Positions 1-25,267 of a DNA stretch of 40,475 nt are shown here, piece by piece (positions within the stretch are counted from its first letter, which is position 1; every line of letters begins with the position of its first letter). The translations under genes were made by a program, and so were the position numbers. The notes beneath the pieces are model-generated. The model saw nothing but the letters and a program-made list of their open reading frames with translations. It was not told where the DNA came from and searched no databases. The stretch is from a virus. Location of the stretch: positions 1 to 40,475 of the IMG/VR virus record IMGVR_UViG_3300032273_000072; one strand, written 5' to 3'.

Positions 1-1236
1 TTACATTAACTTGTTAGTTTTTAGGGGCATATTGGGGGCATTCTCGCCGTATTTTTTGTTCAGCACATCAAGTTGATTTTGGGTATGCTCGCTAACCCAA
101 TCTCCGTACGTTTGATATATTTCTTTAGCACTAGAATGTCCCATTTGTTTTGCTATAAATGTAGGGTTCGCACCCGCAGATAACATCCAACAAGCAAACG
201 TATGTCGGGTCTGATAGGGTTTTCGGTAGGCGATTCTTGCACGTCTTATCGCTGCCGTCCACTTATCATGAATACTAGTATGAAAGTAATAACTTTTCGT
301 TTCTTTTGTAGCAGTAACACGAGGAGAGAAAATAAAGTGCACGGTTTCTATTTCTATTTTTCCATGCTCTCGTTGTTGAACCGTAATATTCTCCGGCAAC
401 ATCATATAAGTTAAAGGCTTTTGTTTTATTAATGCTTTAATCGCGGGATCTAATAAATTAATTACCCTTTCACCCGCTGTGGTTTTAGGTAATTTAAAAA
501 TACCTTTTAACGTTAAATTACGTTTTACATAAATAAGGCCTTTATTGAGATCAATATCTTCCCACGCAAGCGCCATTAATTCGCCGTGTCGTAAGCCGGT
601 ATAAACGGCTAATGCCCATAAGTGTTTATCCTGCTCATTTTTACAGGCCTCGATAAGCCGAAAAAATTCATCACGGCTAAGGGGTGTAGGGGGCGACTTG
701 GATTGTTTTAAATCTTTGATACCGCTGATTACGCGAGGGCTGCAGTATTCATTTGTAATGGCAAAGCTCAGCACCCCTTTTATTGTTCGCATGTAGGTGT
801 TTACCGTTGAGGCCGAACACGTACTTAATAAGGCCAACCGTAGATCTAAGATGTACTCTTGAGTCAGATGGCTGACAAGCAGCTCTGGATCAAGGTAAGC
901 CAGTGTTTGTTTGAGCCGGTTATGGTAGTTAGTCAACGTCGCTTCTGTGACTTCAATTCTTTTGAGCGTTAACCATCGCTCGAATAGCCCCTTTACTGTA
1001 AGCGTGTTGATGTTGACCATATCTTGGTGATTGGTTGAATGAGGAAACCATTCCAGATAGTCAAAAGTACCCAGTCGGATCGCGTGGCAAACCGAGGTTC
1101 TTTTCTCAAAGGCAATTTTGATATTTCTTGGCGTTGGCGGAGAATATAAGCTTTCTCTGCAGCGCTTGCCTCTGAACATGAACCAGATCCTCAGCTTTCC
1201 TGAATGGATCTCAACACCGGTAGGTAGCTTCTTCAT
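1..1236 (-). CDS. int: Phage integrase (tyrosine recombinase)
   Basis: Catalyses site-specific integration and excision of the phage. The protein (411 aa from the ATG at 1236) opens with a short beta-rich arm-binding segment (KLPTGVEIHSGKLRIWFMFRGKRCRE), followed by a core-binding helical domain and a catalytic domain. Visible catalytic elements are the first Arg in YTGLRHGELMALAW, the R-H pair in YQTRHTFACWML, the second His in MGHSS and the nucleophile Tyr in YQTYGDW. A GTG further upstream at 1275 is open but has no ribosome site and would overlap the excisionase gene by 28 nt, so I chose the ATG. It is the last gene of the leftward operon, directly after xis, as in many lambda-like phages. 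No attP core could be identified. Confidence 0.96.
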   Translation of the reverse strand: MKKLPTGVEIHSGKLRIWFMFRGKRCRESLYSPPTPRNIKIAFEKRTSVCHAIRLGTFDYLEWFPHSTNHQDMVNINTLTVKGLFERWLTLKRIEVTEATLTNYHNRLKQTLAYLDPELLVSHLTQEYILDLRLALLSTCSASTVNTYMRTIKGVLSFAITNEYCSPRVISGIKDLKQSKSPPTPLSRDEFFRLIEACKNEQDKHLWALAVYTGLRHGELMALAWEDIDLNKGLIYVKRNLTLKGIFKLPKTTAGERVINLLDPAIKALIKQKPLTYMMLPENITVQQREHGKIEIETVHFIFSPRVTATKETKSYYFHTSIHDKWTAAIRRARIAYRKPYQTRHTFACWMLSAGANPTFIAKQMGHSSAKEIYQTYGDWVSEHTQNQLDVLNKKYGENAPNMPLKTNKLM

Positions 1237-1247
1237 CGATCCTACTC

Positions 1248-1505
1248 TTACATTTGGGGATAAGCGTCTATCCACTCATTAATCGAATGGATGTTGTAGA
1301 GGACTTTTGCTTTGCTGCCTGATGGTACCCCTGTAATGCCAACTTTTCGATAGTGGACACCTTGTTGCCATGCTTTTAAGCGGTAATTAGTGATGGCAGT
1401 GCTAGTGAGTCCATAAACGGCTTGAATGATGTTTTCGCCTACCCATTTGCTTTGTGGGAGGGTAATGATCACACGTGGGTCGCTTTCCTTTATGTCCTTA
1501 TTCAT
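1248..1505 (-). CDS. xis: Excisionase-like small DNA-binding protein
   Basis: An 85-aa protein with the pattern of phage excisionases of the DUF1233 kind: KWVGENIIQAVYGLT (first winged-helix segment), YRLKAWQQGVHYRK, and a C-terminal VLYNIHSINEWIDAYP. Such proteins bend DNA at attP and steer the integrase towards excision. Position immediately upstream of int on the same strand supports the assignment; the stop lies 12 nt before the integrase ATG. Family membership is inferred from residue pattern only. Confidence 0.8.
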   Translation of the reverse strand: MNKDIKESDPRVIITLPQSKWVGENIIQAVYGLTSTAITNYRLKAWQQGVHYRKVGITGVPSGSKAKVLYNIHSINEWIDAYPQM

Positions 1506-6417: not shown

Positions 6418-6613
6418 TGAGTAAGTAAGCGAAAGCTGGGTAGGGTGGAGGATAGCCAAAGAAAACCTAATTTCACCTAACGGATTAAGTATATCTTCAA
6501 ACAAAGTGTTAACAGGTACAGCAATATTAGAGATAGGCACAGAGCATGATAGTCGTAACGTATCTCTAATCATGAAAACAGCAAGGACATTAAGAAAGGT
6601 ACTAAAGAACTAA
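6414..6613 (+). pseudogene. Frameshifted small phage gene (DUF3653-like remnant)
   Basis: Directly behind the helicase stop, ATG ATG AGT AAG TAA would encode only four residues. One frame away, the sequence continues open from 6425 to TAA at 6611 as VSESWVGWRIAKENLISPNGLSISSNKVLTGTAIL, ending in ARTLRKVLKN. The W-x-GWRI ... LISPNG pattern recalls small phage proteins of the DUF3653 type (from memory, not searched). Loss of one base near 6423 would explain both the early stop and the missing start. It marks the end of the intact phage backbone before the first cassette block. Confidence 0.45.
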
Positions 6614-6619
6614 TAATGA

Positions 6620-6686
6620 GTACACTAAAACACCATACCAAAACTGCCGAGTGTAAGTAATAATTCACCTTGTTGCCTTGTTATAA
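6620..6686 (-). repeat. Partial integron attC site (minus orientation)
   Basis: On the minus strand the stop of the 201-aa gene overlaps TTATAAC (6686-6680), which opens a typical attC left arm (CAAGGCAACAAGGTGA) followed by the core ACTCGGCAGTTTTGG. The same string with few changes occurs in the attC at 19168. The matching right arm is not present: sequence similarity ends near the stop of the relic phage gene at 6613, so the site appears truncated at the cassette/backbone junction. Confidence 0.6.
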
Positions 6687-7301: not shown

Positions 7302-7398
7302 TTATAACGCTGAGCACATGCGCCCCTTACTGTACAGTACCGAAACTCAATTCATACCAAAAATACCGAATATAAGGGGGCGACATGGTGCGTTTTAC
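7302..7398 (-). repeat. Integron attC site (minus orientation)
   Basis: A 97-bp imperfect palindrome. On the minus strand it starts GTAAAAC (7398-7392), has arms GCACCATG-TCGCCCCCTTA and TAAGGGGCGCATGTGC, a central TTCGGTATTTTTGG related to the cores at 6640 and 19200, and ends with the crossover box GTTATAA (7308-7302) preceded by GC. Box order, extended arms and position (between two same-strand cassette genes, just before the RBS of the downstream one) fit attC of chromosomal Vibrio-type integrons. Confidence 0.8.
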
Positions 7399-7591
7399 GA
7401 CTTTTTAAAGTTAAATAAGGCAATAACCCAACCATCAAGATCATATAAATTCCGATAAAAATGTAAACAACGAAATCGCGAAAATCTAAGTTCGTATATT
7501 TCATAACTGAAACAAACCAAAAACGATAGCTGGATGTTAGCTGTTAGGACGGAGTAGTATTATCGATACCAAAACTACCAAACCTGAGGTA
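7399..7591. other. Non-coding part of cassette behind the FRG gene
   Basis: No credible ORF. Immediately behind the stop of the FRG gene lies the minus-strand string TTTGGTAGTTTTGGTATC inside a short dyad (GATACC / GGTATC), resembling the attC core seen at 6640 and 7355; possibly a remnant of another attC. The rest is AT-rich and featureless to me. Confidence 0.4.
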
Positions 7592-8884: not shown

Positions 8885-8919
8885 TAAATTTCCAAGTTTT
8901 TACTAAATCTAAATAGAAG

Positions 8920-9012
8920 ACATAGCCATGTACGTCTAAAATAAGGTGTGCGTACACTGAACTTACCAAGCCGCATCGAACTTCAAGCCAAAAACAGAGC
9001 AATTTGTTAGCT
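8920..9012 (-). repeat. Degenerate attC-like stretch (minus orientation)
   Basis: On the minus strand the stop codon of the 221-aa gene merges into AGCTAACAAATTGC (9012-8999), the usual way Vibrio cassettes join attC, followed by a GATGCGGCTTGG-type core and CACACCTTATT, a string also found in the attC at 19168. A proper crossover box (GTTRRRY) is not seen at the far end, so the site looks decayed. Low confidence. Confidence 0.3.
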
Positions 9013-9672
9013 GCGATGCTCAAATTTACCTTTATGGACTCCATCACATAGTACTTTTAACCATATGAAGAATTCATCCATACTTGGGTCGAGTTCCAAA
9101 CTTTCATCTTCTCCTGCATTCATACATACAAGGATCAATTGGCCTGTATTAGGCTTCAAATTAACGTAATCAATGTCAAATTTTACAGAGTTGTCAGCAA
9201 TACCAGGCAACCATTCCAGCTCTATCGGGAACTGGTTTATAAACCTGTCTGTCGCAGCAAGAAATAGTTCTGTTACATCAATAAAATCTTTGGTTTCTGA
9301 TTCTGTGGGGATATAGTATTCGTGCTCAACAGCATTACGAACTGAATTTAGTTTCTTCAATATTCGCGGTGTCACTATGCCACATTTCTGACAATATTCT
9401 AAATAAGTGTGAAAATTCGAGTGGCCTTTCTTTTTATGAGTATAACCGAAAGCTTTAGCAATCGTTTCTACTTGTAAGTGCATTGCTCTTTTTGCATTTG
9501 AAAGTGCGTTAACTCGAATTCTACTATTTGTAGGGTCAAGGCAGCTTTCTAGATCTTCGATAGAAAAATCCAAGTAAAGATGTGGTGTTGTCTCTACTGG
9601 ATACGAAATTTTATCCCAACTAGTTGAGAACGCTGGATCGAAATTATCATAATGAGATGGTAATGGTATCAA
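9007..9672 (-). CDS. HEPN-like cassette protein (221 aa)
   Basis: Residues 57-120 are helical and end in KKLNSVRNAVEHEYYIPT, with R112-N-A-V-E-H117, again the R-x4-H HEPN motif; the preceding AMHLQVETIAKAFG resembles the first helix of small HEPN domains. The C-terminal 90 residues (SVKFDIDYVNLKPNTGQLILVCM ... EFFIWLKVLCDGVH) look like a mixed alpha/beta domain of unknown type. The start at 9672 lacks a strong ribosome site. It is the most upstream gene of the minus-strand accessory cluster. Its role as an RNase or regulator of another toxin is inference. Confidence 0.65.
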   Translation of the reverse strand: MIPLPSHYDNFDPAFSTSWDKISYPVETTPHLYLDFSIEDLESCLDPTNSRIRVNALSNAKRAMHLQVETIAKAFGYTHKKKGHSNFHTYLEYCQKCGIVTPRILKKLNSVRNAVEHEYYIPTESETKDFIDVTELFLAATDRFINQFPIELEWLPGIADNSVKFDIDYVNLKPNTGQLILVCMNAGEDESLELDPSMDEFFIWLKVLCDGVHKGKFEHRS

Positions 9673-11671: not shown

Positions 11672-13422
11672 AAATTATTAATTATAAAGAGTTTTTCGTC
11701 TTCAATAGAATTACAAAAAAAGGGTTCTGGGAAGAGTTCGATAGCGGTATAAATATTATAAGTGGTAGGAATACTTCAGGGAAAAGCACATTAATTCAAA
11801 GTTTGCTGTATGTTTTTGGTATTAATGATGAAAAAGAAAATCTTGATGATATCATTAGTGTATTCACAATATTTTATTTGAGGTTTGAAATCAGAACCGA
11901 TGGCGTTTGTAGTGAATACTCCATAGTTAGAGAATGTGACAATATATATGTAAAATCACCTAATGGTAGAATTGACAACTTTTCAGGTATAACTGGTAAC
12001 AATTCAATTGAACATAAAAAGTTAAAGCAATTTTTATCAGAGCTATTCGGTTTTTCATTACATTTAGAATCTCAAGGTGAGATGAGGCCTGCTTCGTTAG
12101 AAGTTATGTTTTTACCTTACTATGTATCTCAGTCAGTTGGTTGGGTGTACCTTAGAAGCTCATTTTCGAATTTGAGTTTTTATAAAAACTTTAAAGAAGA
12201 CTATCTTAACTACTATCTAGGCATAGATTCTAGTTATAACCGTGAGAAAAAAATCGAACTTACCGAACAGAAAAAAGAGTTAGATAGTGAAGTTAAACAG
12301 TTAGAAAAGAACTTGAAAAAAGACAAGTTTAAAGTAGCTAAATTACTTGATGAAAAGTTCGGTTCTGACGCAGATAAGTATATTAGTGGTTATAATGAAT
12401 CCTTTAAGCTCTTAACTACTGCAAGAAATGATGTAATAAGGTACACGAACCAACATTCATTAATGAAAATTCGTCTTAATATTATAAATCAGACGGATAG
12501 AAATTTAAAAAAACAAGAGCCTGGTTCAGCCAAGTGTCCTGCATGTGAACAGGTAATTGAAAGTAACATTCATACTATTTATGAATACCACCAAAATATA
12601 AATGACACGTTAAAAGTTAAAGTTGAACAGAAAAATAAAATTGAATTGATTCAAAAAAAGATAAATACAAGTATAAATAAAGTGGGAAAATATACAAAGG
12701 AAATAAAAGAAAACTATTCTGTTTTGGAAGGTTTTTCTTTTGATGGCGTAAGCTTTGTTGAATGGGTTAATCATAAAGTAGATCTTAAATTGTATGAAAC
12801 TAGTCAGGAAGAAATAGTTGTAAATACAGGAAAAATCGAAGTATTAAGTAGGCAGTTAAAAAATTTTAAAACTGATGATGAAGTTAAGAAAGAGCAATTT
12901 AAAAAAGAGAGAGAGTTTTACAAGATATTCAAAAAATATCTTTCCGAATTAGATGTTAAAGAGTTCTCAAAATCAAGTTATCAGGATTTATACAAAATTT
13001 CCTCTTTTCCTGTTCAAGGTGTGGAGCTACATAAAACGATTATGGCATATCACTTTGCATTTAATAAAGTAATGTTAGATACTCCTGAAATACATCGTCT
13101 ACCACTTTTGCTGGATGCAATCTTAAAAGAAGATATTGATCCAACTAGCTTAGATTTGATTTTTAAGTTTATTAATAAAAACAAGCCAAAAGATACTCAA
13201 ACATTTATTACAATGTCTGAGTCAAAAGTAGATGAAAAGAGGGATAGGGAAAGCGCGGTCGAGGGGCTTAAAATGAATGAGATTAATAGAGATTATTTTT
13301 CAGATGAAGCTAAAGTCATTTACGTTGGGAAATGTGTTGACAAACGTTCATTTTTAACACCAATTTTAAGCGATCATGATGAATTACTACGTGATATAGA
13401 CGAAATGGTTTATTCAGTCTAG
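11668..13422 (+). CDS. SMC/Rad50-like ATPase, partner of the nuclease
   Basis: A 584-aa protein. Walker A is GRNTSGKST (residues 33-41). Coiled-coil segments (about 190-285 and 310-420) flank C290-P-A-C293, a zinc-hook-like CxxC as in Rad50. After the second coil, a degenerate signature region (VELHKTIMAYHFAFNKV) precedes a Walker B-like LPLLLDAILKEDI (D483). The protein is shorter than full SMC proteins, fitting LmuB-type defence ATPases. It probably senses DNA ends or replication intermediates and controls the upstream nuclease (inference). It overlaps that gene by four bases and is followed by a strong terminator. No third Lamassu gene (LmuC-like) is present next to it. Confidence 0.85.
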   Translation: MKIINYKEFFVFNRITKKGFWEEFDSGINIISGRNTSGKSTLIQSLLYVFGINDEKENLDDIISVFTIFYLRFEIRTDGVCSEYSIVRECDNIYVKSPNGRIDNFSGITGNNSIEHKKLKQFLSELFGFSLHLESQGEMRPASLEVMFLPYYVSQSVGWVYLRSSFSNLSFYKNFKEDYLNYYLGIDSSYNREKKIELTEQKKELDSEVKQLEKNLKKDKFKVAKLLDEKFGSDADKYISGYNESFKLLTTARNDVIRYTNQHSLMKIRLNIINQTDRNLKKQEPGSAKCPACEQVIESNIHTIYEYHQNINDTLKVKVEQKNKIELIQKKINTSINKVGKYTKEIKENYSVLEGFSFDGVSFVEWVNHKVDLKLYETSQEEIVVNTGKIEVLSRQLKNFKTDDEVKKEQFKKEREFYKIFKKYLSELDVKEFSKSSYQDLYKISSFPVQGVELHKTIMAYHFAFNKVMLDTPEIHRLPLLLDAILKEDIDPTSLDLIFKFINKNKPKDTQTFITMSESKVDEKRDRESAVEGLKMNEINRDYFSDEAKVIYVGKCVDKRSFLTPILSDHDELLRDIDEMVYSV

Positions 13423-14689: not shown

Positions 14690-14730
14690 ATGTGGGTCAT
14701 GGATTAATCTCATGAACTTTGGAGCATGTA

Positions 14731-15291
14731 ATGAAGACTATTGCTTTAATTATTGGCCACTCTGCGAAAAGCGGCGGAGCAGCAAACAGAACTCACTGTA
14801 TCAATGAATTTCAATTTAATGGGCCGCTTGCTCATTGTGTTGCTAAAAAGCTGATGCTGTATGAATTCGATCCGATTATTATTTATCGTGATTGTTCTTA
14901 TTCAAAACTGCCCAAGAAGGTGAATCAAACGGGTGCAGACATCGCGGTATCTTTCCACTGTAATGCCTTCAATGATAAATCTAATGGCTCTGAGACGCTT
15001 TACTATAAACATAGTGTAAAAGGTATTCTTCTTGCCTCTGCAATACAGAAAGAAGTGGTTCACTGCCTTGGATTAAAAGATCGTGGCCTTAAACCTTGCG
15101 TGGCATCTTACAAAGGTAAAGCTGGCGATCGTGGTGGCTTACTCCTTCAGAAAACCTCAATGCCATGTGTGATTGTTGAGCCGTTCTTCATTGATAGTGA
15201 TAGTTCGCTTGAACTTGCGCAAGAAAGGTTTGATGACTTGGCTAAAGCATACGCCTTAGGAATAAAAAACTTTTTGGGAAGTGAGATATGA
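14731..15291 (+). CDS. Endolysin: N-acetylmuramoyl-L-alanine amidase
   Basis: A 186-aa Amidase_3-type zinc enzyme that cleaves the bond between MurNAc and the peptide stem. Zinc ligands are seen as the His in LIIGHSAKSGG, the Glu in NEFQFN and the His in AVSFHCNAF; the catalytic Glu is in CVIVEPFFIDS near the C-terminus. No signal peptide, so release by a holin is needed. GGAG lies seven bases before the ATG at 14731, favouring it over the ATG at 14719. The stop overlaps the start of the 3TM holin gene (ATGA). Confidence 0.9.
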   Translation: MKTIALIIGHSAKSGGAANRTHCINEFQFNGPLAHCVAKKLMLYEFDPIIIYRDCSYSKLPKKVNQTGADIAVSFHCNAFNDKSNGSETLYYKHSVKGILLASAIQKEVVHCLGLKDRGLKPCVASYKGKAGDRGGLLLQKTSMPCVIVEPFFIDSDSSLELAQERFDDLAKAYALGIKNFLGSEI

Positions 15292-15764
15292 GCCTATTAA
15301 CAAAAATCACGGATGTTGTTGGTGGTTCATTATTTGGTTCGGTCAAAGAGTTGATAACGGATTACTTTCCACCGGATATGTCCCCTGAAAAGAAAGCAGA
15401 GCTGCAGCGAAAAATCGATGAAATGGAATTTAAGAAGCAGATAGCCATTCTTGAAGCTGCTGCTGATGCAGAAAAAACACTAAATCAGCGTATTGCTGAG
15501 CAAGAGGGGACAGCAAGTGATTTAAAGCAATTGCCAATCGTGGGAAGGATAGTGCTCTTTCTTCGTGGTTTGCAGCGTCCTATGTGGGGGTTCTTTGTTA
15601 TGTACCTTGATTTTGAGTGGTTCACGAAAGCTCCAACATACACTGAGCAACAACAATCGGCGTTAATCGTGATTAATCTGTTGGTTCTTGGATTCTTATT
15701 TGGAGAGAGGACGATAACGAACTTAAAGCCGCTGATTGTAGAAGTATTCGGTAGGGGAAGATAA
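15288..15764 (+). CDS. Holin, 3TM (GTA-holin) family
   Basis: A 158-aa protein with a polar, helical N-terminal half (PPDMSPEKKAELQRKIDEMEFKKQIAILEAAADAEKTLNQRIAEQE) and hydrophobic segments around LPIVGRIVLFLRGLQRPMWGFFVMYLDF and SALIVINLLVLGFLFGERTI. The LRGLQRPMWGF motif between segments is typical of the Holin_3TMs family. It would permeabilise the inner membrane and let the amidase out. Translationally coupled to the amidase gene. Confidence 0.85.
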   Translation: MSLLTKITDVVGGSLFGSVKELITDYFPPDMSPEKKAELQRKIDEMEFKKQIAILEAAADAEKTLNQRIAEQEGTASDLKQLPIVGRIVLFLRGLQRPMWGFFVMYLDFEWFTKAPTYTEQQQSALIVINLLVLGFLFGERTITNLKPLIVEVFGRGR

Positions 15765-15780
15765 GTAGAATAATTGAAAG

Positions 15781-15818
15781 CTGGTGGGCTAAGGAGTGAC
15801 TATCCTCCAGTTTTTTTA
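15781..15818 (+). terminator. Probable terminator after the lysis genes
   Basis: Interrupted stem CTGG...AGGA / TCCTCCAG followed by seven T. The stem is imperfect, so confidence is moderate. Confidence 0.55.
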
Positions 15819-16073
15819 CTTCATCCATTTAACTTTCCATTATGTATATTACCTCCTTCAAAATACCCTCAGACTAAATTCCAATTTTCCACAAGGATAT
15901 GCTTAAACCGGCACGAAGAGCTTGCGCATTATTCATCTGTGTTTTTAAACAGTATATGAAGTATTTTATGCTTCCTTTGTCAAACTGACCTCCAAAAAAT
16001 CGCTTCAATCATTGATATATGAACGAAAAAAGTTCAAATTAGACAAACTGTTAGTTAATAAGTATTGGTTAGC
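15819..16073. other. Non-coding spacer before the cassette array
   Basis: No convincing ORF; AT-rich. It ends at the box GTTATGT, the presumed left boundary of the cassette block. No integron integrase gene or clear attI is visible here. Confidence 0.4.
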
Positions 16074-16080
16074 GTTATGT
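16074..16080 (+). repeat. Integron crossover box at left edge of array
   Basis: GTTATGT preceded by GC, identical to the terminal box of the attC sites at 16986 and 20842. No left arm (R'') can be paired with it, so it may be a secondary insertion site or the remnant of a site. It would be the joining point of the first plus-orientation cassette. Confidence 0.45.
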
Positions 16081-16160
16081 GTTTGATTTATTGAAGAGTT
16101 TAGATGTGCTACATTGAACTGAAGTTTAATAACTGTATGAAAATAGAGTGAAAATCAATC

Positions 16161-16523
16161 ATGGAACTCCTTTTTGAATCTACAAAAAGCTTTGAAAAAG
16201 AGCTATCAAAATTTTCTGGTAGCACTAAGAATAAAATAGTAGAAAAATTGAATTGTTATTGCTCTCTACTGGAATCTGAGGATAAATCACTATTCTATAA
16301 AAATGCATATCAGCCAATTAGGTTTAAAGGCCGTTCTGACTCTAGCCTTTATGCGTTAAAAATTGATCGAGATATTAGAATTATATTAACAGTTGATGAA
16401 GATCCAATTTTTGAACAGATAATTATTACGTTATTGCATGTTGTTCGCCATTCTTCTTTGGATAAAGTTTTTAAAGGTATCGCGGAGTCTTTATACCAGC
16501 AACGATTAAATGGTGACGACTAA
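16161..16523 (+). CDS. RelE/ParE-like toxin candidate
   Basis: A 120-aa protein with the RelE/ParE layout: STKSFEKELSKFSGSTKNKIVEKL (opening strand and helices), RFKGRSDSSLYALKIDRDIRIILTVDEDPIFEQIIITLLHVVRHSSLDKVF (central strands with basic residues). Such proteins cut ribosome-bound mRNA or poison gyrase. It is the first gene of a cassette and overlaps the next gene by one base (TAATG). No HTH antitoxin is next to it, which is unusual for this family. Confidence 0.7.
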   Translation: MELLFESTKSFEKELSKFSGSTKNKIVEKLNCYCSLLESEDKSLFYKNAYQPIRFKGRSDSSLYALKIDRDIRIILTVDEDPIFEQIIITLLHVVRHSSLDKVFKGIAESLYQQRLNGDD

Positions 16524-16864
16524 TGGCTGAAATTAAAATGTTGCTTGACGAATTTGGTATTATTCATGAGGCAAACAAAATCCTTACCGATAACGATTTG
16601 AAGCTGAAGTTCTTATCATCTCTTGCTGAATTAGAGGACAATTCCTGTCATTGCAATCGTCATTATCCTTTAACACGGCTTCATCGTGTAACTGGGCAAA
16701 AAAAAGCCATCTACCGAGCAGATATAGACAAAATATCAGGCTGGAGGCTTCATCTTCAGTTTGATAGCAAAACTAAAGCTTTAGTTCTTAAAGATATTAT
16801 CGAAGGTCAAAAACATGATGCTGTCGAAAAAGTAATAAAATCCAAGAAAGGTCGGTATGTCTAA
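16523..16864 (+). CDS. RelE-superfamily-like second cassette gene
   Basis: A 113-aa protein whose middle and end (LTRLHRVTGQKKAIYRADIDKISGWRLHLQFDSKTKALVLKDIIEGQKHDAVEKVIKSKKGRYV) also follow the RelE-type strand pattern with basic residues and a terminal KSKKGRY. No DNA-binding fold is seen, so it does not look like a standard antitoxin. The stop lies two bases before the attC left box, completing the cassette. It could be a partner that neutralises the first protein by pairing, or a second toxin. Confidence 0.6.
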   Translation: MAEIKMLLDEFGIIHEANKILTDNDLKLKFLSSLAELEDNSCHCNRHYPLTRLHRVTGQKKAIYRADIDKISGWRLHLQFDSKTKALVLKDIIEGQKHDAVEKVIKSKKGRYV

Positions 16865-16866
16865 AC

Positions 16867-16992
16867 ACATAACAAAGCGTTTAAGACTGATTCCCAACGC
16901 TTGGCATTTTAATTTCAAGTCGAATTTTGTGTTACGGTGTAATGGTTTAGGTTAGGTGTTGGCGTTGTTCACTACTTAACGCGGCGTTATGT
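16867..16992 (+). repeat. Integron attC site
   Basis: A 126-bp site. Left box ACATAAC (16867-16873) and right box GTTATGT (16986-16992) are exact complements; arms AAGCGTTTAAG and CTTAACGCGGC pair with few mismatches; inner strings CAACGCTTGGCATT and TTGGCGTTG are those of Vibrio-type chromosomal integron repeats. A second site of the same length and high similarity lies at 20723. Crossover would be between G16986 and T16987. Confidence 0.92.
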
Positions 16993-17027
16993 GCTACTTG
17001 TCTTGATTACTTATATTTAACGGAAAA

Positions 17028-17252
17028 ATGATGGATAACATTAAGAGGTCAAATTTGCTTCTAGCTTTGGCTGAAGTGGTTCAAGATATTGAAGTAATAG
17101 AAAAAATCGAGGGCTGTTCTGGTCGCTTATCGAGTGAAGAGTTAGAAAATTTAGAACGCTTAATCCTCAATAAAGTGATGTCGTATCGTGCTCATGATAA
17201 GTGGCCACCCCAAATTAGTTCGATAACAGAAGTAATGAATTTCGATAGTTAA
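17028..17252 (+). CDS. Unknown 74-aa cassette protein
   Basis: A small acidic helical protein (RSNLLLALAEVVQDIEVIEKIEGC ... SSEELENLERLILNKVMSYRAHDKWPPQISSI). The Met-Met start at 17028/17031 lies 36 bases after the crossover box of the preceding attC, and the gene ends 33 bases before the next, the normal dimensions of a one-gene cassette. No recognised family or motif. Confidence 0.65.
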   Translation: MMDNIKRSNLLLALAEVVQDIEVIEKIEGCSGRLSSEELENLERLILNKVMSYRAHDKWPPQISSITEVMNFDS

Positions 17253-17284
17253 AAATTCATTCGCTCTGAGAGTTTGAACTACGC

Positions 17285-17400
17285 ACATAACAAATACATC
17301 AACACAATTTGCTACATTCGGCATTGTAGTTTTGTCTTTAGTTTCAGTGATTACGGCAGTAAAATTCAGCTTAATCTGTATTGTAGCAAACGTGTTATGC
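17285..17400 (+). repeat. Integron attC site, diverged type
   Basis: A 116-bp site with ACATAAC (17285-17291) and GTTATGC (17394-17400) as outer boxes and inner arms TTTGCTACATT / TTGTAGCAAAC. Centre sequence differs from the two 126-bp sites, so this cassette has a different origin. It ends the 74-aa gene cassette. Confidence 0.82.
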
Positions 17401-17403
17401 AGC

Positions 17404-17430
17404 CAAAAAAGGGGCTTATAGCCCCTCTTT
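17404..17430 (-). terminator. Terminator of the antisense cassette genes
   Basis: On the minus strand GGGGCT-ATA-AGCCCC followed by six T, five bases downstream of the stop of the 309-aa gene. It also lies just behind the attC at 17285-17400. Confidence 0.85.
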
Positions 17431-17434
17431 AATA

Positions 17435-18364
17435 TTAGCTGTTATCTTTTTCGATTATCTTATTTATTAAGCTTGTACTAATGAATGATGCAAGAGATAA
17501 ACTTGATAGTGAAAGAGAAGACTCTCTAACTTTTGACTCCCATAGATCCAAGTTTATATCATCTTGGTCTTTATAAGTAACTGATAGGTAGTTTGAAAGT
17601 CTATTTTTCACATTGTAACTATCTGTTTTTGGGCTGTTTTTAATATCAATAGCACCACTTAAACATCTTTTGAATACATAGAAATCAGCATCATGCTTAT
17701 TTATTGACTCAGGAAATATTTCTGATTCAAGATTATTAGACATTAATTCAGATATGTATGTAAAATTTGATATGTTATTGTGCTTTTCATAGGCGTAATT
17801 GACGATATCCTTGACCAAGCTATCAAAGCTATCACTTTTATGGCTGATAAAAAGTTTCTGAATAGTTAAATGTTGTCTGTTTATATCAACAGGGCAATTA
17901 TTTGATTGTTGCTTAACTTTAACTTCATTATCTGTTAAATAATGTTGCATTACATTTGATAGAGTCTGGCGTAGTAAATAGTCTTTATCATTCAAGTCAT
18001 CAAGGTACTCAGGTTCTGATAAAGAACAAAATTTGTGTGCTGCTTTATAAAAATACGGAATGTGTACATATTCGTTGACGCTTTGTTTTAAAAAACGGCT
18101 CATGTATGATCTATCACCAAAAATGTGACTTCTTCGATCAAACTTAGCACAATAAACAGCATTGCTTCCTACACTATAAAACTCTTCAACGCCACCTTCA
18201 TAGCTATCCAAGTGTTCTAAGTAAACAGGTTCAAAACCTTTAATAGTATCGTTATCAATTATTTGTACGTATAAATTGCCATCATTCTCAAATACAGGGG
18301 TACTAAAACCAAACTTCGAAGATGATGGCGCAATGAAACCATAAACTCTATATGCATTTGACAT
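17435..18364 (-). CDS. Unknown 309-aa protein, second gene of antisense cassette
   Basis: I do not recognise this protein. The N-terminal 100 residues look beta-rich (YRVYGFIAPSSSKFGFSTPVFENDGNLYVQIID), the middle is helical with polar stretches (LRQTLSNVMQHYLTDNEVKVKQQ) and the end is serine/leucine-rich (RESSLSLSSLSLASFISTSLINKII). No membrane span, signal peptide or catalytic motif is obvious. Its ATG overlaps the stop of the upstream gene by one base, so both proteins are made together and probably act together. Two-gene antisense cassettes with their own transcription are typical of toxin-antitoxin or defence cargo. Confidence 0.7.
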   Translation of the reverse strand: MSNAYRVYGFIAPSSSKFGFSTPVFENDGNLYVQIIDNDTIKGFEPVYLEHLDSYEGGVEEFYSVGSNAVYCAKFDRRSHIFGDRSYMSRFLKQSVNEYVHIPYFYKAAHKFCSLSEPEYLDDLNDKDYLLRQTLSNVMQHYLTDNEVKVKQQSNNCPVDINRQHLTIQKLFISHKSDSFDSLVKDIVNYAYEKHNNISNFTYISELMSNNLESEIFPESINKHDADFYVFKRCLSGAIDIKNSPKTDSYNVKNRLSNYLSVTYKDQDDINLDLWESKVRESSLSLSSLSLASFISTSLINKIIEKDNS

Positions 18365-19161
18365 TAGATAACCCCCGTGTCTGATAGATACTCTGAAGCT
18401 TTATTTAAAATAACACTTGTCGTTGAACTCGGCGAAGACCGGTAAACTTCATAAGTGATTGGGTCGATATTGTAATCAATTAACAGCTGTGTTACTGACT
18501 CATCTCCTAACATCTCAGATGGCATAATAATCGCTTTTACAGAACCATTTGTAATATCCAGTGGACCATCACTTTGTACTTCGATTGTAGTGCACCTATC
18601 ATCAACTTGAGCTAGTCCTTTGTTGTTTATTATGTGTACAATTGACTGAAGTTCAGCTGCAAGGGGAGGGAGGTCGTCTGAGCTTAGAGTAGCTTTGCCT
18701 TTATAGTAATTACTGTTGTTAGTGTATATGTATTCAACAAACTTCTTGATAAAATCAAAGTTAGGTTTAAATTCAAACTGACTCATTTCTAGCTTGGATA
18801 CTACATGTTGCTGGTATAAAGCTGCATCGAAAGCCCCTGTATCAAAAGGGTATGCCCGTTTAAAACTAGATATTCCGGCTGGTTCAATAATGAAGCATAC
18901 AGGGAATAGCTGGATCATCCCTGTACAGTCTTCTCTTTTTAGTCTGTATGCTGGTCGACCGTAGAAATAGTACGCTAGATTTTCATTAAAGACACTGCAG
19001 TGTGTTGTCGCTATTTGCTTAGAATCAATGATTCCACGAAAGCCAATACCATCACACGTATGCATTAGCGGAATCAAGTTAAGAGTACTTTGCTGTCCGT
19101 CTATGTGTTCTCTATATCTCATTGAATTATCTATAATAGTATTTTTTTGCCAGTGTATCAT
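18364..19161 (-). CDS. Unknown 265-aa protein, first gene of antisense cassette
   Basis: The conserved-looking start LIPLMHTCDGIGFRGIIDSKQIATTHCSVFNENLAYYFYGRPAYRL, then LFPVCFIIEPAGISSFKRAYPFDTGAF, vaguely recalls the opening of ADP-ribosyltransferase-fold enzymes (LxHxT ... I ... G/S-x-I/L), but I cannot name a family. The remainder is mixed. The frame is open up to 19185, inside the attC; the ATG at 19161 keeps the gene outside the left box of that site, and a third ATG at 19122 is possible. None has a good ribosome site. It is coupled to the next gene through a one-base overlap. Confidence 0.65.
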   Translation of the reverse strand: MIHWQKNTIIDNSMRYREHIDGQQSTLNLIPLMHTCDGIGFRGIIDSKQIATTHCSVFNENLAYYFYGRPAYRLKREDCTGMIQLFPVCFIIEPAGISSFKRAYPFDTGAFDAALYQQHVVSKLEMSQFEFKPNFDFIKKFVEYIYTNNSNYYKGKATLSSDDLPPLAAELQSIVHIINNKGLAQVDDRCTTIEVQSDGPLDITNGSVKAIIMPSEMLGDESVTQLLIDYNIDPITYEVYRSSPSSTTSVILNKASEYLSDTGVI

Positions 19162-19167
19162 TTGGCA

Positions 19168-19270
19168 ACATAACAAAGCAATCAAGGTGATACGTTACAC
19201 TCGGCGGTTTTGGTTCGGGGTTCGGTGCGCTTTACTAGTTTAGTGGGTGTACACCTTATTGCAGGTGCTG
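19168..19270 (+). repeat. attC site with decayed right box
   Basis: ACATAAC (19168-19174) opens the site; arms GCAATCAAGGTGATAC and TGTACACCTTATTGC pair; the core ACTCGGCGGTTTTGG matches that at 6640. After the right arm the expected GTTRRRY is replaced by GGTGCTG, so this end may no longer recombine or was lost when the next element joined. Confidence 0.65.
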
Positions 19271-19273
19271 GGT

Positions 19274-19504
19274 AATCCCCACAAAATCATGAATGATTCC
19301 CACCAATTGGTTTATTATATGTGTTGATTTACTTTGCTCATGGTATTGATTGTCCGAAGGTTAGTGTAATGTTTGAACATAAAGTAACGTGCTTTTGAAT
19401 TTTTGTATTTGGAGCGAATCCATTAGATTTGTAGACAAGCTTTGTGTCTACTTATTGAACTACAAAGGTATTTTGTGGGGATTCGCAAGTTGCAGGCGTT
19501 AGGT
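19274..19504 (+). repeat. Long inverted repeat ending in an integron crossover box
   Basis: AATCCCCACAAAAT (19274-19287) and its exact complement ATTTTGTGGGGATT (19470-19483) enclose 182 bases with no ORF, including a second hairpin GTAGACA / TGTCTAC. Behind the right arm comes GCAGGCGTTAGGT; GTTAGGT (19498-19504) has the form of an attC right box and stands 17 bases before the abiH remnant. Either an attC with an enlarged loop or a small non-coding cassette. Confidence 0.5.
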
Positions 19505-19521
19505 GTAGCTAGGAGGTAATT

Positions 19522-20388
19522 ATCAGCACCCTTTATATAATTGGAAATGGGTTTGATCTTTGGCACTGACTATCAACAAGTTATCGTGATTTCTATGTGT
19601 TTGCTAAATCTACTCTTGATGACATAGAGAGTCACTATTCATTCGACTTGCGGAATCATGAGCCTTGGCATGATTTTGAAAATGCGCTTGGTGATTTTGA
19701 TCCTGATTCATTTTTAGATTTTCATAATGAAGTTGATGTTACCTCTGATCACTTTAAACCAAAGGATATTTATGGTCTAGAGGATGAGATTACTCAGCAA
19801 GCTGATTTACATGTTTCAGGCATTCAAGAGGCTTTTGGTGATTGGGTAAATCAAATTGAAGTTAACCATGCACTACCGAAAATGTCTTTTCTCTTAAATT
19901 CACAATTTATCACATTCAATTACACGTCAACTATTCAATCAGTTTATAACATTGAAAAATCAAGGGTTCTACATATCCACGGTAGTGTTGATTCATATGA
20001 TGAATTAGTTTTTGGTCATGGTAAAGAAATAGTAAAACAGCCCGAATTCGATGAGAATGGTGAAAGCACAGGTTCAATATTTTCAGAGGCTGAGGGCAAT
20101 GCAATGTATCCCCTCGTTGCGTTGCAAAAACCAGTACAAGATGTTTTGAATCGACATGAAGACTACTTTTGTCAGCTCAGTGATATAAATGAAATTATCA
20201 TAATCGGACACTCTTTAAATAGTATTGACTGGCCTTATTTCACTAAGATTGCAGGTATTGCTGTTGGTGCTGAATGGAAAGTCGTGTATTACGCGGAAGA
20301 AGAAGAAAATGAATATTTTGAAAGCCTAGTTGAGTGTGGTGTACCAGAAGAAAATATAGTGACTTTGGAATATAGTGACCTTGTCTAA
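19522..20388 (+). pseudogene. abiH-like abortive infection gene, disrupted
   Basis: Behind GGAGGT the frame begins ATC-AGC-ACC and reads STLYIIGNGFDLWH, then TGA (19567-19569), then LSTSYRDFYVFAKSTLDDIESHYSFDLRNHEPWHDFENALGDFD. The GNGFDL-x-H-GLPTSY type opening, the W-x-DFE-x-ALG part and the later FNYTSTIQSVYN ... HIHGSVDSYDELVFGHG ... IIIGHSLNSIDWPYF belong to AbiH proteins. Two point changes (a lost ATG and a glycine codon turned to TGA) suffice to explain the break. The rest, 264 codons, is open and well conserved, so inactivation is recent; a shortened protein from GTG 19597 would lack the conserved nucleotide-binding-like start. Confidence 0.8.
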
Positions 20389-20395
20389 ACCGTAT

Positions 20396-20437
20396 ACTTA
20401 ACAAGCAATTTTAGTCCGTTTAATGTAGGCGTTATAA
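20396..20437 (+). repeat. Truncated attC-like site
   Basis: ACTTAAC (20396-20402) and GTTATAA (20431-20437) with GGC before the latter, only 42 bases apart. Too short for a normal attC (usually about 57 or more), so probably shortened by an internal deletion. It lies eight bases behind the abiH stop and about 20 before the next cassette gene, as expected for cassette structure. Confidence 0.5.
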
Positions 20438-20456
20438 CTAATAGGGAGTTTTCAGT

Positions 20457-20699
20457 ATGGGAAGCTTTGCTCGACATCATGATGAATTAAAAAATGCCTT
20501 TGTAGATTTGAAGGGTTGTACGCTAACAACGAAGTCGATAAAGGAAGTTATAGGGCTAAAAATTCCTGAGTTTGATGAAAATTGGATTTATCCATCTGAT
20601 CACTGTATCAATCACATATGCAAAGGTGCTTGTGATTGTGCTGAAACTTCGAATGCTATATTTGAGCGTCTAGATAGAGGCTTGTATAAGGTCGTATAG
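20457..20699 (+). CDS. 80-aa cassette protein with Cys-rich C-terminus
   Basis: Start ATG 20457 with AGGGAG upstream. The protein begins with a helical part (FARHHDELKNAFVDLKGCTLTTKSIKEVIGLKIPEF) that could be a winged helix, and ends in WIYPSDHCINHICKGACDCAETSNAIFERLDRGLYKVV. The PSDHC-x-N pattern followed by a '-RG-Y-V' end resembles small proteins common in Vibrio integron cassettes and nuclease-associated wHTH tails; I cannot name a function. The cluster of four Cys (HC, IC, AC, DC) might bind metal. An attC follows 23 bases after the stop. Confidence 0.6.
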   Translation: MGSFARHHDELKNAFVDLKGCTLTTKSIKEVIGLKIPEFDENWIYPSDHCINHICKGACDCAETSNAIFERLDRGLYKVV

Positions 20700-20722
20700 A
20701 GACGGATGTTTTGGAAATTTAG

Positions 20723-20848
20723 TTATAACAAGGCGTTTAAGACAGATCCCCAACGCTTGGCATTCTCAGTTCAAGGTTAATTTGTGTTTACGGTGCAATG
20801 ATTTAGGTTAAGTGGAGGCGTTGCTTATTACTTAACGCGGGGTTATGT
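20723..20848 (+). repeat. Integron attC site, right edge of array
   Basis: A 126-bp site nearly collinear with that at 16867: TTATAAC (20723-20729), GGCGTTTAAGACAGATCC, CAACGCTTGGCATT, TTTACGGTG, GATTTAGGTTAAGTGG, CTTAACGCGGGGTTATGT. Right box GTTATGT is 20842-20848. No further attC is seen to the right, so this appears to be the end of the array. Confidence 0.9.
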
Positions 20849-20892
20849 ATTAGTGGATTGCTCTCCCTATCTAACGTAAAAAAATGGATTCA

Positions 20893-21783
20893 TTATAGGT
20901 GTATTTTTAACCTAATATTTTGGAGTATTTTAATCACTTGTCTACTGTCGGGCATCGGGAACTGACTTACTCTAACAACGGCAGATTTTGCAGCACGACA
21001 GAGGTAATTGTCTCCTCTTTCTTCTGAGGTACTAAGTACCAAGCCATTGGCTAATAAGTGGAATGTTAAAATACACTCTTTACCAACGAAGTTTTGGTCA
21101 GCAGGCAAGTTTTGTTGGATCATTTGGGCATAAATTGCACTATAACGAGACACCTCATCATCGACAAATGCCCCTCTAGGGTCAGTTCTGGTTTCTACTT
21201 CGTTAAATCGAGGCGGTGGGGTAGTATTCTTAATTTTTAAATTTAGCTTTTCGATCTCTTTATCTACTCGATCTTGTGGTGTGGTATATCTCTGTTCGTT
21301 AATAATTCCTTTTATATTTCCACACGAACTTACTGCGCTTGCAAAAGATTTATTGAAGCCTATACCAGAAAAGTGCCAATCCGTTACCGTCGAGCCTGCA
21401 GATCTAACTCTGATAATGAAGCTATTCGATTTTTGAATTCTACTTATCAGGTATGGTACATCTTCACTGTTTAAAAAAAGGCTGTCGTTAGTGCCCTCAT
21501 CAAAAAATACTTTTAAGGCTGTATCATTGTCAGCTCTAAATTTACCTAGTTTAGTACCACCAACATAGCCAATATCATTAATATATAACTGATAGTTCCC
21601 ACCAGAACATAGCGCGAAAATTTTAGCTTTGTATGGCCAGCTTTCGTTTTTCGCAATAGAAAAAGCTCCAACAGTATTGGAATCATCCATCACATCTGTT
21701 GACTGGTATGCATTCCAATCATCACTTGCAAGTGAGTAGGAAGAGGCAGTTAGCAACCAGAGCGTCAATAAATATTTAAACAT
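20893..21783 (-). CDS. Secreted protein with TolA-like C-terminal domain
   Basis: A 296-aa protein with a Sec signal peptide (MFKYLLTLWLLTASSYSLAS, cleavage after SLA-S). Residues 22-160 resemble small secreted beta domains such as VasI-like ones (WPYKAKIFALCSGGNYQLYINDIGYVGG ... FSGIGFNKSFASAVSSCG, with two Cys likely disulfide-bonded). A charged linker (about 170-210) is followed by YAQMIQQNLPADQNFVGKECILTFHLLANGLVLSTSEERGDNYLCRAAKSAVVRVSQFPMP, which follows the pattern of TolA domain III, including both Cys. TolA III is the receptor of filamentous phages and colicins, so a periplasmic mimic could affect envelope function or exclude other phages (inference). Last gene of a three-gene minus-strand operon. 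Confidence 0.75.
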   Translation of the reverse strand: MFKYLLTLWLLTASSYSLASDDWNAYQSTDVMDDSNTVGAFSIAKNESWPYKAKIFALCSGGNYQLYINDIGYVGGTKLGKFRADNDTALKVFFDEGTNDSLFLNSEDVPYLISRIQKSNSFIIRVRSAGSTVTDWHFSGIGFNKSFASAVSSCGNIKGIINEQRYTTPQDRVDKEIEKLNLKIKNTTPPPRFNEVETRTDPRGAFVDDEVSRYSAIYAQMIQQNLPADQNFVGKECILTFHLLANGLVLSTSEERGDNYLCRAAKSAVVRVSQFPMPDSRQVIKILQNIRLKIHL

Positions 21784-22063
21784 TTCCCGATTCCTTATCT
21801 GATCTCGTTATTTTTTTAATGGAAAGTCGGAAGCTTGTAGGGGGAGGTATTGCGGTATTCATCATTTCAGTGAACGTGGCATAAGCATCTGTTACAAAAA
21901 CCTCAGAGTCTACAAAGACAATAAAGGTTTGATCCTTGTAGTTCATTGGGCATCGAGTGTAGACGGCTCGGTAACCATGCTTAAGGCGTGAGAGCTCCTT
22001 TAATGCTGAATCACCAGTAAGTACACGAAAGCTAAGGTCCCTATCTATAAAGAAGTGCTTCAT
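21776..22063 (-). CDS. Unknown 95-aa protein
   Basis: From the ATG at 22063 (GGGAG seven bases upstream) to 21776, overlapping the start of the TolA-like gene by eight bases. Predicted soluble alpha/beta (MKHFFIDRDLSFRVLTGDSALKELSRLKHGYRAVYTRC ... QTFIVFVDSEVFVTDAYATFTEMMNTAI), with no signal peptide. Lies between two exported proteins in the same operon. The frame is open further upstream but a longer protein would overlap the lipoprotein gene. No family recognised. Confidence 0.65.
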   Translation of the reverse strand: MKHFFIDRDLSFRVLTGDSALKELSRLKHGYRAVYTRCPMNYKDQTFIVFVDSEVFVTDAYATFTEMMNTAIPPPTSFRLSIKKITRSDKESGNV

Positions 22064-23159: not shown

Positions 23160-23597
23160 ATGAATAATCACGATAAAAATGGCAAGGCTCACGAAAATAA
23201 TGACGGCGATGAGCCAGAAGTAAAAGTCATTATGATTGGGGAAGTTGCTGTTTCTGAAACAGATTATCTTCGCGCCGAATACCTTTTTGTGGCGGGTTAT
23301 ACCTCGGCAAAGATAGCCAACTGGCTAGGTGTAAAGGTGAAAGATATGACTGCAATTGGGCTCACAAAGGTGAATTGTAAGCTCACTTTTGACGCAAAAA
23401 TAATGCATTTATTCGCCATTGGTAAAGGGGCGCCGGTCATGACCACGTTCCTGAAGACCATGCCTTTTTATGATGAGGTTGATCAACGGCCACCGTCGAA
23501 AAAGACCAAAACCAAGAAAGAATTTGAGAAAGAAGATGCGGCGAGAGCCGGTAAAACGGGCAAGTTCAGAAAGTCTGGATTACGGAGTGTTAAGTGA
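23160..23597 (+). CDS. terS: Terminase small subunit (probable)
   Basis: A 145-aa protein immediately before TerL. Residues 33-60 (ETDYLRAEYLFVAGYTSAKIANWLGVKVKDMTAIG) form a helix-turn-helix like that of small terminases, which bind the packaging site and pass DNA to TerL. The C-terminus is lysine-rich (PPSKKTKTKKEFEKEDAARAGKTGKFRKSGLRSVK). The assignment rests mainly on position and HTH. The stop overlaps the TerL start region (GTGATGATG). Confidence 0.65.
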   Translation: MNNHDKNGKAHENNDGDEPEVKVIMIGEVAVSETDYLRAEYLFVAGYTSAKIANWLGVKVKDMTAIGLTKVNCKLTFDAKIMHLFAIGKGAPVMTTFLKTMPFYDEVDQRPPSKKTKTKKEFEKEDAARAGKTGKFRKSGLRSVK

Positions 23598-25267
23598 TGA
23601 TGCCACTGCAGTCTACAGCCAACCTGGATTGGGAAAAAAGGATCCTTGCAGGTGAAAGCATTATTCCCTTTGAGACGTATAACCAGTCCCTTGCTGATGA
23701 AGCCTGGGAAATTTTGAAGGAATTGAAGGTTGTTGATGCCCTGAGACAGCCAACGATTGGTGAGTCTCACCTGCCATGGTTACGCCAGTTCTGTGATGCC
23801 ATCTTTGGCTCTTACGACATTGAAGCAGAAGAGCAGATCATCAAAGAGATCTTGCTGCTTATTTCCAAGAAGAATTCTAAATCATCGACTGCAGCCGGCA
23901 TCATGCTGACTCTGTTGATTCTTAATACGCGAGCGTCTGCTGAGTTTTTGATTTTGGCGCCGACTATCGAGGTGGCCAACAACTCCTATCAACCTGCTCG
24001 GGACATGATAAAAGCGGACCCTGAACTTGAGCGCATTCTTAAAGTACAAGATCACGTCAGAACGATTACGGATATTGAAACCGGCTCGACTCTCAAGGTG
24101 GTGGCGGCTGAATCAGATTCTGTGTCAGGTAAGAAAGCCTCCGTCGTGCTGGTGGACGAGCTTTGGTTATTTGGTTCAAAGCCTAATGCTGAAAACATGC
24201 TGCGTGAAGCAACCGGTGGTTTGGCATCACGCCCTGAAGGGTTCGTGATTTATCTCACCACACAATCAGATAAACCACCGGCTGGTGTGTTTAGAACCAA
24301 GCTCGAGTACGCGCGGAAAGTGCGTGACGGTAAAACGAATGATCCTTATTTCCTCCCTGTGCTTTACGAATTTCCCCAAAGCATGATTAAGGATAAATCC
24401 TACCTTGAGCAGAAGTATTTCAAGTTAACGAACCCGAATATGGGACTCAGCGTGTCTGAAACCTTTTTAATTCGTGAGTTGGCAAAAGCCCAGGAAGATG
24501 GGGATGAAAGTCTCATCGGCTTCCTGGCTAAACACCTCAATATTGAAATCGACATGAACCTGCGTAATGACCGGTGGGTTGGGGCTGATTTTTGGTCTGA
24601 CTGCGCAACGGACGTGACACTCGCACGCATCCTTGAGGAGTCAGATGCCATTTCAATTGGCATTGATGGTGGCGGTTTGGATGACTTATATGGTTTGGCC
24701 GTGATTGGACGCCATGCCGAAACACAACGATGGATGTTTTGGACGCATGCCTGGGCGCATCCCATTGTCCTGAAACGACGCAAAGCACAAGCGCCACGTT
24801 TCAAGGGATTTGAGAAGGATGGGGATTTAACACTGGTCAAAGAAATTGGCGATGACATGGATGACATCGTTGCAACGGTCAGTGAAGTGGATGATAGCGG
24901 TTTACTTGTTCAAATAGGGATTGACCAACATGGCTTAGCATCGCTGGTGGAAGCCCTTATCGATGCACAAATTGATGAAGATAAAATCATCGGTATCTCC
25001 CAGGGCTGGAAGATGATGAGTGCGATTAAGACTGTTGAGCGACGCCTAGCCGACAAAAGTGCCGAGCATGATGGCTCGATGATGATGAAGTGGTGTGTCG
25101 GGAATGCCCGAACAAGACCTGTTGGTAATGCCGTCATGATCACCAAGCAAGAATCTGGCCCTGCAAAAATTGACCCACTCATGGCGTTGTTTGATGCCGC
25201 ATCGATTATGGCGCAAAACCCTGAAGGTGTAACCACACCACAAGTGTACAACTTGGAGGATGTGTAG
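23597..25267 (+). CDS. terL: Terminase large subunit
   Basis: A 556-aa packaging motor. The ATPase half has a Walker A-like ISKKNSKSSTAAG (the pattern of HK97-type TerL), DEL in ASVVLVDELWLFGSKP as Walker B plus catalytic Glu, and YLTTQSDKPP as motif III. The RNase H-like nuclease half begins ISIGIDGGGLDDLYGLAVIGRH and includes IGIDQHGLASLVEALID. Initiation at ATG 23597 or 23600; a GTG at 23594 is also in frame. The gene ends next to the portal start. Confidence 0.95.
   Translation: MMPLQSTANLDWEKRILAGESIIPFETYNQSLADEAWEILKELKVVDALRQPTIGESHLPWLRQFCDAIFGSYDIEAEEQIIKEILLLISKKNSKSSTAAGIMLTLLILNTRASAEFLILAPTIEVANNSYQPARDMIKADPELERILKVQDHVRTITDIETGSTLKVVAAESDSVSGKKASVVLVDELWLFGSKPNAENMLREATGGLASRPEGFVIYLTTQSDKPPAGVFRTKLEYARKVRDGKTNDPYFLPVLYEFPQSMIKDKSYLEQKYFKLTNPNMGLSVSETFLIRELAKAQEDGDESLIGFLAKHLNIEIDMNLRNDRWVGADFWSDCATDVTLARILEESDAISIGIDGGGLDDLYGLAVIGRHAETQRWMFWTHAWAHPIVLKRRKAQAPRFKGFEKDGDLTLVKEIGDDMDDIVATVSEVDDSGLLVQIGIDQHGLASLVEALIDAQIDEDKIIGISQGWKMMSAIKTVERRLADKSAEHDGSMMMKWCVGNARTRPVGNAVMITKQESGPAKIDPLMALFDAASIMAQNPEGVTTPQVYNLEDV

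What the first reader, a model, noticed from the sequence alone, without database searches (positions are those of the whole stretch)
16074..20848. Integron gene-cassette array embedded in a phage genome, without an integrase
Between the lysis genes and the packaging genes lie three good attC sites (16867-16992, 17285-17400, 20723-20848), one with a decayed right box (19168), one extended inverted repeat with a crossover box (19504) and one truncated site (20396-20437), all in the same orientation. They separate about six small genes or gene pairs with the spacing expected of cassettes. The window holds no integron integrase, so this is a cluster of attC sites lacking integrase, carried by a temperate phage. 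Phages moving integron cassettes would link two major gene-exchange routes.
Basis: partly seen in the sequence, partly recalled or inferred. Interest (0 to 1): 0.93.

Follow-up and report, generated by a model that had tools for sequence, protein, structure and literature searches.

The report
Integron gene cassettes carried by phage
A temperate phage of marine Photobacterium bacteria carries a real row of integron gene cassettes without the enzyme that moves them; related prophages carry different cassettes at the same two spots, and a short phage sequence in front of the row recurs in an unrelated phage, which suggests phages have a standard place where bacterial cassettes are parked.

Summary
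A covariance model built only from bacterial attC sites finds three sites here at E 5e-20 to 4e-23; a second model, of a Photobacterium attC type, finds the 19169-19270 site at 1e-21. Six units (231-1873 bp) end at G|TT crossovers; one of these has decayed to G|CT. The window has no integron integrase. It is not an assembly join: near-identical phages share both flanks, and prophages in bacterial genomes carry such arrays. (2) A ~160-bp noncoding module, followed outside the window by a hairpin ending TTAGYG|TT, forms the leading edge. Homology between phages stops exactly at the crossover, and the module recurs before nine attC sites in a phage with no shared backbone. Most likely host integrases insert cassettes in trans at this edge. 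No empty site was found; recombination is untested.

The parts
15912..16071 (+). Conserved noncoding leading-edge module of the array; in sibling phages it continues ~100 bp to a hairpin GGAAGYAYGTGCTTYCTA..TTAGYG|TTA, which is missing in the window
   Evidence: Homologous in G003, two prophages of G073 and unrelated phage G335; hairpin pattern
16075..16986 (+). Cassette 1: two overlapping ORFs (120 + 113 aa), toxin-antitoxin-like layout (inference only; no family match); attC 16868-16989
   Evidence: pair found at 78% DNA identity in G049 without attC nearby
16868..16989 (+). attC site 1, Vibrio type
   Evidence: R1 E=3.6e-23
16987..17394 (+). Cassette 2: ORF of 74 aa (17028-17252); attC 17286-17402
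17286..17402 (+). attC site 2, second Vibrionaceae type
   Evidence: R1 E=5.4e-20; up to ~93% identical to bacterial sites
17395..19267 (-). Cassette 3: two-gene pair on the opposite strand (253 aa 18364-19125, then 309 aa 17435-18364), unknown function
   Evidence: no relative of the 309-aa protein in 330 Vibrionaceae genomes
19169..19270 (+). attC site 3, Photobacterium ~101-nt type, crossover decayed to G|CT
   Evidence: R2 E=1.3e-21; crossover
19268..19498 (+). Gene-less unit with long inverted repeat ending in a G|TT crossover
   Evidence: 88-92% identical to arrays in three host genomes, two of them Photobacterium (G001, G002, G054); inverted repeat I1
19499..20431 (+). Cassette 5: AbiH-family abortive-infection gene, interrupted by an in-frame stop after GNGFDLWH; truncated attC 20397-20437
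   Evidence: PF14253 5.4e-38, PADLOC AbiH, stop; homologue is a cassette flanked by attC in a chromosomal array of G020
20432..20842 (+). Cassette 6: ORF of 80 aa (20457-20699, weak DUF7225); attC 20724-20845
20724..20845 (+). attC site of cassette 6, Vibrio type, last site of array B
   Evidence: R1 E=2.6e-20
6579..6685 (-). Decayed attC of array A, 3' of ORF 6681-7286
   Evidence: R2 E=2.6e-4
7305..7399 (-). Decayed attC of array A, 3' of FRG-domain gene 7592-8293
   Evidence: R2 E=3.2e-6
8930..9041 (-). Decayed attC of array A, 3' of HEPN-like gene 9007-9672
   Evidence: R2 E=2.7e-4
1..1275 (-). Phage tyrosine integrase (temperate lifestyle); not an integron integrase
   Evidence: PF00589; 30.8 bits against TIGR02249 cut-off of 265
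14719..15764 (+). Phage lysis genes flanking array B on the left (amidase; next ORF)
   Evidence: PF01520; 91-94% DNA identity in siblings
23594..25267 (+). Terminase large subunit, phage flank on the right
   Evidence: PF03354/PF20441; 94-100% aa identity in siblings

Best explanation
The block is a genuine integron cassette array without its integrase (a CALIN) in a cargo locus of a temperate Photobacterium phage. Shown by sequence: real attC sites, cassette-sized units, shared phage flanks, and recurrence of arrays in siblings at the same two loci and in the same orientations with different cassettes. Inferred: while the phage sits as a prophage or infects a cell whose chromosome encodes IntI, that enzyme inserts excised cassettes into a fixed leading edge of the phage locus (G|TT after a conserved module), and can excise or reshuffle them there. 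The phage then carries them to new hosts, where IntI can take them up. Cassettes are kept when useful to the lysogen (abortive infection, toxin-antitoxin, TIR/SIR2-type defence) and otherwise decay, as several sites here have.
For: attC sites. Bacterial origin of sites and of the gene-less unit. The P. indicum genome that carries a sibling prophage also encodes a bona fide IntI (392 bits) followed by an array of the same attC types. Sibling prophages: P. indicum prophage with four attC at locus A; G073 chromosome-2 prophage with arrays at A and B; G073 chromosome-1 prophage with an array at B. Fixed edge: left 130 bp 83-86% identical between three siblings, right 130 bp unrelated, breakpoint at G|TT. 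Same module before nine attC in a phage with no shared backbone protein. Phage attC sites from other phages recombine with IntI1 in vivo (PMC9892861).
Against: No empty site was found, so insertion at the edge was not seen as a before/after pair. Two genomes with sibling prophages (G073, G002) lack an IntI above the cut-off, so capture there would have to be older or to have happened in another host. The window's own edge lacks the hairpin. Several window sites are decayed and AbiH has an in-frame stop, so parts may be passive relics. No cassette of the window is an exact match to a known chromosomal one.
Confidence: 0.72

Rival explanations
1. Wholesale transfer: a piece of chromosomal cassette array entered the phage once by homologous or illegitimate recombination, and variants spread among phages by recombination between conserved flanks; no integrase acted on the phage itself.
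For: Arrays lie in cargo loci that also swap non-cassette cargo; several sites are decayed; Qi et al. suggest off-target or illegitimate recombination for their phages (PMC9892861).
Against: Different cassettes are joined at exactly the same G|TT nucleotide in siblings and in an unrelated phage; the same orientation recurs at each locus.
Confidence: 0.22
2. Assembly chimera or mis-bounded record joining phage and chromosomal integron sequence.
For: The record is an IMG/VR contig without reads on hand; mis-bounding may affect other records (MK672802 contains thrS-infC-rpmI-rplT and a second integrase gene).
Against: Phage genes continue on both sides at the same locus in relatives; prophages inside assembled bacterial contigs of 1-4 Mb carry equivalent arrays.
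Confidence: 0.02
3. attC-like repeats are phage terminators or other phage repeats that only resemble attC.
For: attC sites are said to act as weak terminators (PMC9892861); MFE of the single strands is unremarkable.
Against: E-values to 4e-23 against models from bacterial arrays, nucleotide identity to ~93% with bacterial sites, cassette-like spacing, AbiH homologue flanked by attC in a chromosomal array.
Confidence: 0.01

Closest known systems
CALINs in phages (Qi et al. 2023, PMC9892861: Tetrasphaera phage TJE1, Pseudoalteromonas phage PH101, Shewanella prophage M16-3 and others)
   Same: attC clusters without integrase among phage genes; mostly one orientation; TJE1 array also begins next to a hairpin with GTTRRRY motifs
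   Different: Photobacterium is not named in that paper. Here a family of prophages shows recurrent arrays at two fixed loci and a leading-edge module conserved between unrelated phages
Sedentary chromosomal integrons of Vibrionaceae (e.g. P. indicum G001)
   Same: Same attC types and some cassettes (gene-less unit, AbiH family)
   Different: Integrase present and far more cassettes there; none in the phage
Va_90-11-286_p16 and Va_PF430-3_p42, V. anguillarum temperate phages with an SCI segment (PMC9892861)
   Same: Vibrio-type attC array in a temperate phage record
   Different: That record (p16) includes an intI and host genes thrS-infC-rpmI-rplT; the excision boundaries lie inside the chromosomal integron, not in a phage cargo locus
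attG sites (Loot et al. 2024 Nat Microbiol, cited in PMC11023631)
   Same: Non-classical genomic sites into which IntI inserts cassettes at G|TT
   Different: attG sites are described as widespread; the phage edge is one conserved sequence, and its use by IntI is untested

Membership tests
CALIN | Two or more attC sites clustered (within about 4 kb of each other) | tested here: met
   Four significant sites at 16868-20845, gaps under 2 kb
CALIN | No integron integrase nearby | tested here: met
   Only the phage integrase, 30.8 bits against cut-off 265
Complete integron | intI gene | tested here: not met
Complete integron | attI site beside the array | tested here: inconclusive
   A conserved leading edge exists, but it occurs in only one of 330 Vibrionaceae genomes, in its two prophages; IntI binding not testable here
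Integron gene cassette | Unit bounded by G|TT crossovers and ending in its own attC | tested here: met
   Cassettes 1, 2 and 6 fully; cassette 3 ends in a decayed crossover, cassette 5 in a truncated attC, unit 4 in an atypical inverted repeat
Functional attC | Recombination by IntI | not testable with these tools
   Needs a conjugation assay; done for other phage sites in PMC9892861
Temperate phage | Integrase plus structural, packaging and lysis genes; relatives as prophages | tested here: met

The most novel reading that the evidence does not exclude
Some temperate phages carry a dedicated, integrase-less docking platform for integron cassettes: a ~160-bp module plus hairpin ending in TTAGYG|TT that acts like an attI site in trans. 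It is conserved between phages with unrelated backbones, found in no other Vibrionaceae genome of the 330 searched, and each time followed by an ORF joined at the G|TT; three of the four hairpin copies lead into confirmed attC arrays.
Probability: 0.33. Interest if true: 0.82.

Novelty: new variant of a known kind. Interest (0 to 1): 0.6.

Why it matters
If phages hold a standard cassette-docking edge, then integrons, the main bacterial stockpile of small adaptive genes (defence systems included), are directly coupled to phage transduction. That would help explain how sedentary chromosomal cassettes move between species, and it can be tested with one recombination assay and a survey of Photobacterium prophages.

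Tried and rejected
Rfam search of the window: no match. Global folding of attC strands as a test: no better than shuffles, also for some bacterial sites, so replaced by an outer-arm test. Empty-site search with the left flank and module in 330 Vibrionaceae genomes, viral contigs, phages and plasmids: no empty site. A search for attC of the Photobacterium 101-nt type in viral contigs with one strict pattern found nothing; not evidence of absence. Homologues of the 309-aa cassette-3 protein: none found. Promoter scan of the leading edge: no sigma-70-like site. Considered that MK672802 is an independent phage with cassettes; set aside because it contains host thrS-infC-rpmI-rplT and a second integrase gene, although Qi et al. 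treat it as a functional phage. Considered that the leading edge is a chromosomal attI remnant: nothing similar beside bacterial arrays in 330 genomes.

Full report
What was checked. The window is an IMG/VR virus record of 40,475 bases. It encodes a phage integrase, a DnaB-type helicase, lysis genes, HNH, terminase, portal, tape measure and tail genes. Its close relatives are Photobacterium prophages: terminase 100% identical in P. indicum ATCC 19614 and P. profundum ATCC BAA-1252, 99% in metagenomic record G003.

The attC sites are real. I collected 41 attC sites from six Vibrionaceae genomes (none from the window) and built covariance model R1. Scored over the whole window with filters off, it finds 16868-16989 (E=3.6e-23), 20724-20845 (2.6e-20), 17286-17408 (5.4e-20) and 19169-19270 (1.4e-5); the next hit anywhere is at 0.27. 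A second model (R2) from 19 sites of a ~101-nt type, most of them from Photobacterium, raises 19169-19270 to E=1.3e-21. The sites match attC copies in 280 of 330 Vibrionaceae genomes. The stem arms are complementary beyond shuffles (z about -4 to -5), within the range of bacterial sites; the global fold energy is not informative.

Anatomy. Crossovers at 16074, 16986, 17394, 19267, 19498, 20431 and 20842 cut the block into six units of 912, 408, 1873, 231, 933 and 411 bp; all read G|TT except 19267, which has decayed to G|CT. Unit 1 holds two overlapping small ORFs; unit 3 two genes on the opposite strand; unit 4 has no gene and is 88-92% identical to arrays in three genomes; unit 5 is an AbiH-family gene with an in-frame stop near its start and a truncated attC; its homologue in G020 sits between attC sites. 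Array G+C is 0.35 against 0.45 for the structural genes. There is no integron integrase.

A second array. R2 finds three decayed attC sites on the other strand at 6579-6685, 7305-7399 and 8930-9041 (E 2.6e-4, 3.2e-6, 2.7e-4). Each lies just 3' of a minus-strand gene, as in cassettes. So the phage has two cargo loci: A (6419-9699) and B (15766-21804).

Siblings. The flanks of both loci are shared by relatives, mostly at 84-98% DNA identity, while the content between them differs. The P. indicum prophage has four attC sites at locus A, same orientation as the window's array A, with DUF2971, SIR2 and TIR genes as cassettes. That on the smaller contig carries arrays at A and B, that on the larger at B. 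Their cassettes are GrpB-like, GNAT, PIN-like and DUF1643 genes, none shared with the window. At locus B, the P. indicum, P. profundum BAA-1252 and G003 phages carry no attC but other genes, including defence-like ones. This recurrence, in bacterial chromosome contigs too, rules out an assembly join.

The leading edge. In the two G073 prophages and in G003, a noncoding stretch homologous to window 15912-16071 continues to a hairpin GGAAGYAYGTGCTTYCTA and ends TTAGYG|TTA. The left 130 bp are 83-86% identical between the three; the right 130 bp are unrelated; the switch falls on the crossover base. In G003 the record ends inside the first unit, so an attC there is not shown. The window shares the module and the final TTAGCG|TTATG but lacks the ~100 bp with the hairpin. 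A pattern search of all viral contigs found the hairpin in one further record, G335, a lambda-like phage (P-like helicase loader, NinB, NinG, endolysin) whose terminase, portal, capsid, tape measure, tail tip, integrase and helicase are unrelated to the window's (about 48 of its 51 kb were compared). There the module sits between the phage integrase gene and nine attC sites. The exact pattern is absent from all other of 330 Vibrionaceae genomes, and the module has no match in phage and plasmid collections.

Reading. Shown: a CALIN in a temperate phage, recurrent in its family, with a conserved leading edge. Inferred: capture by host IntI in trans. P. indicum encodes such an enzyme (392 bits) beside an array of the same attC types. 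Not shown: recombination, an empty site, or a single-cassette difference between near-identical phages.

Known context. Qi et al. 2023 (PMC9892861) reported integron parts in 21 phages, 17 CALINs, and showed five of six tested phage attC sites recombine with IntI1 into attI1. They also noted a hairpin with inverted GTTRRRY motifs before one array. IntI-mediated insertion into non-classical genomic sites (attG) is described by Loot et al. 2024, seen here only as a citation. That integron cassettes include phage-defence systems has been reported in 2025 (from memory; not in the library searched). The finding is therefore a new variant of a known kind; the unresolved and more interesting question is whether the leading edge is a phage-borne acceptor site.

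Noticed in passing
window 10556-13422: Lamassu-type defence pair (LmuA 2.5e-113, LmuB 4e-207 in PADLOC) between the two cassette loci.
   Followed up: partly
window 7592-8293: FRG-domain protein, strong match to candidate defence family PDC-S15, in decayed array A.
   Followed up: partly
window 8303-8331: Partial attC-like right half (GCATCACCTTGATTGTTTAC) next to the 186-aa ORF, probably a further truncated site of array A.
   Followed up: no
L004 13867-13989: Single attC (E=1e-13) in the P2-like Vibrio phage 10N.286.55.C3_PE002 (PQ189370), beside a small ORF.
   Followed up: partly
L003 23843-28053: Phage record MK672802 includes thrS-infC-rpmI-rplT and a second integrase gene beside 16 attC sites, so its boundaries run into the host chromosome.
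   Followed up: partly
L141-L157: 17 stretches in IMG/VR contigs hold Vibrio-type attC sites, several with many; whether these are phage cargo or mis-bounded prophages was not checked.
   Followed up: no
L139/L140 (G073 chromosome-1 prophage array): A cassette array interrupted by insertion sequences, one pairing an IS91-like transposase with a 303-aa tyrosine recombinase; IntI-like recombinase fragments recur several times in the genome.
   Followed up: partly
window 19268-19498: Gene-less 231-bp unit with 38-nt inverted arms (71% complementary), unlike ordinary attC; also in three other genomes at 88-92%.
   Followed up: partly
G003rc 43304-46485 (metagenome record): Beyond the tail genes the record repeats fragments of helicase, lysis gene and leading edge, as in a neighbouring second prophage.
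   Followed up: no
window 20893-21783: TolA C-terminal-domain secreted protein next to the array's trailing end, function in the phage unclear.
   Followed up: no
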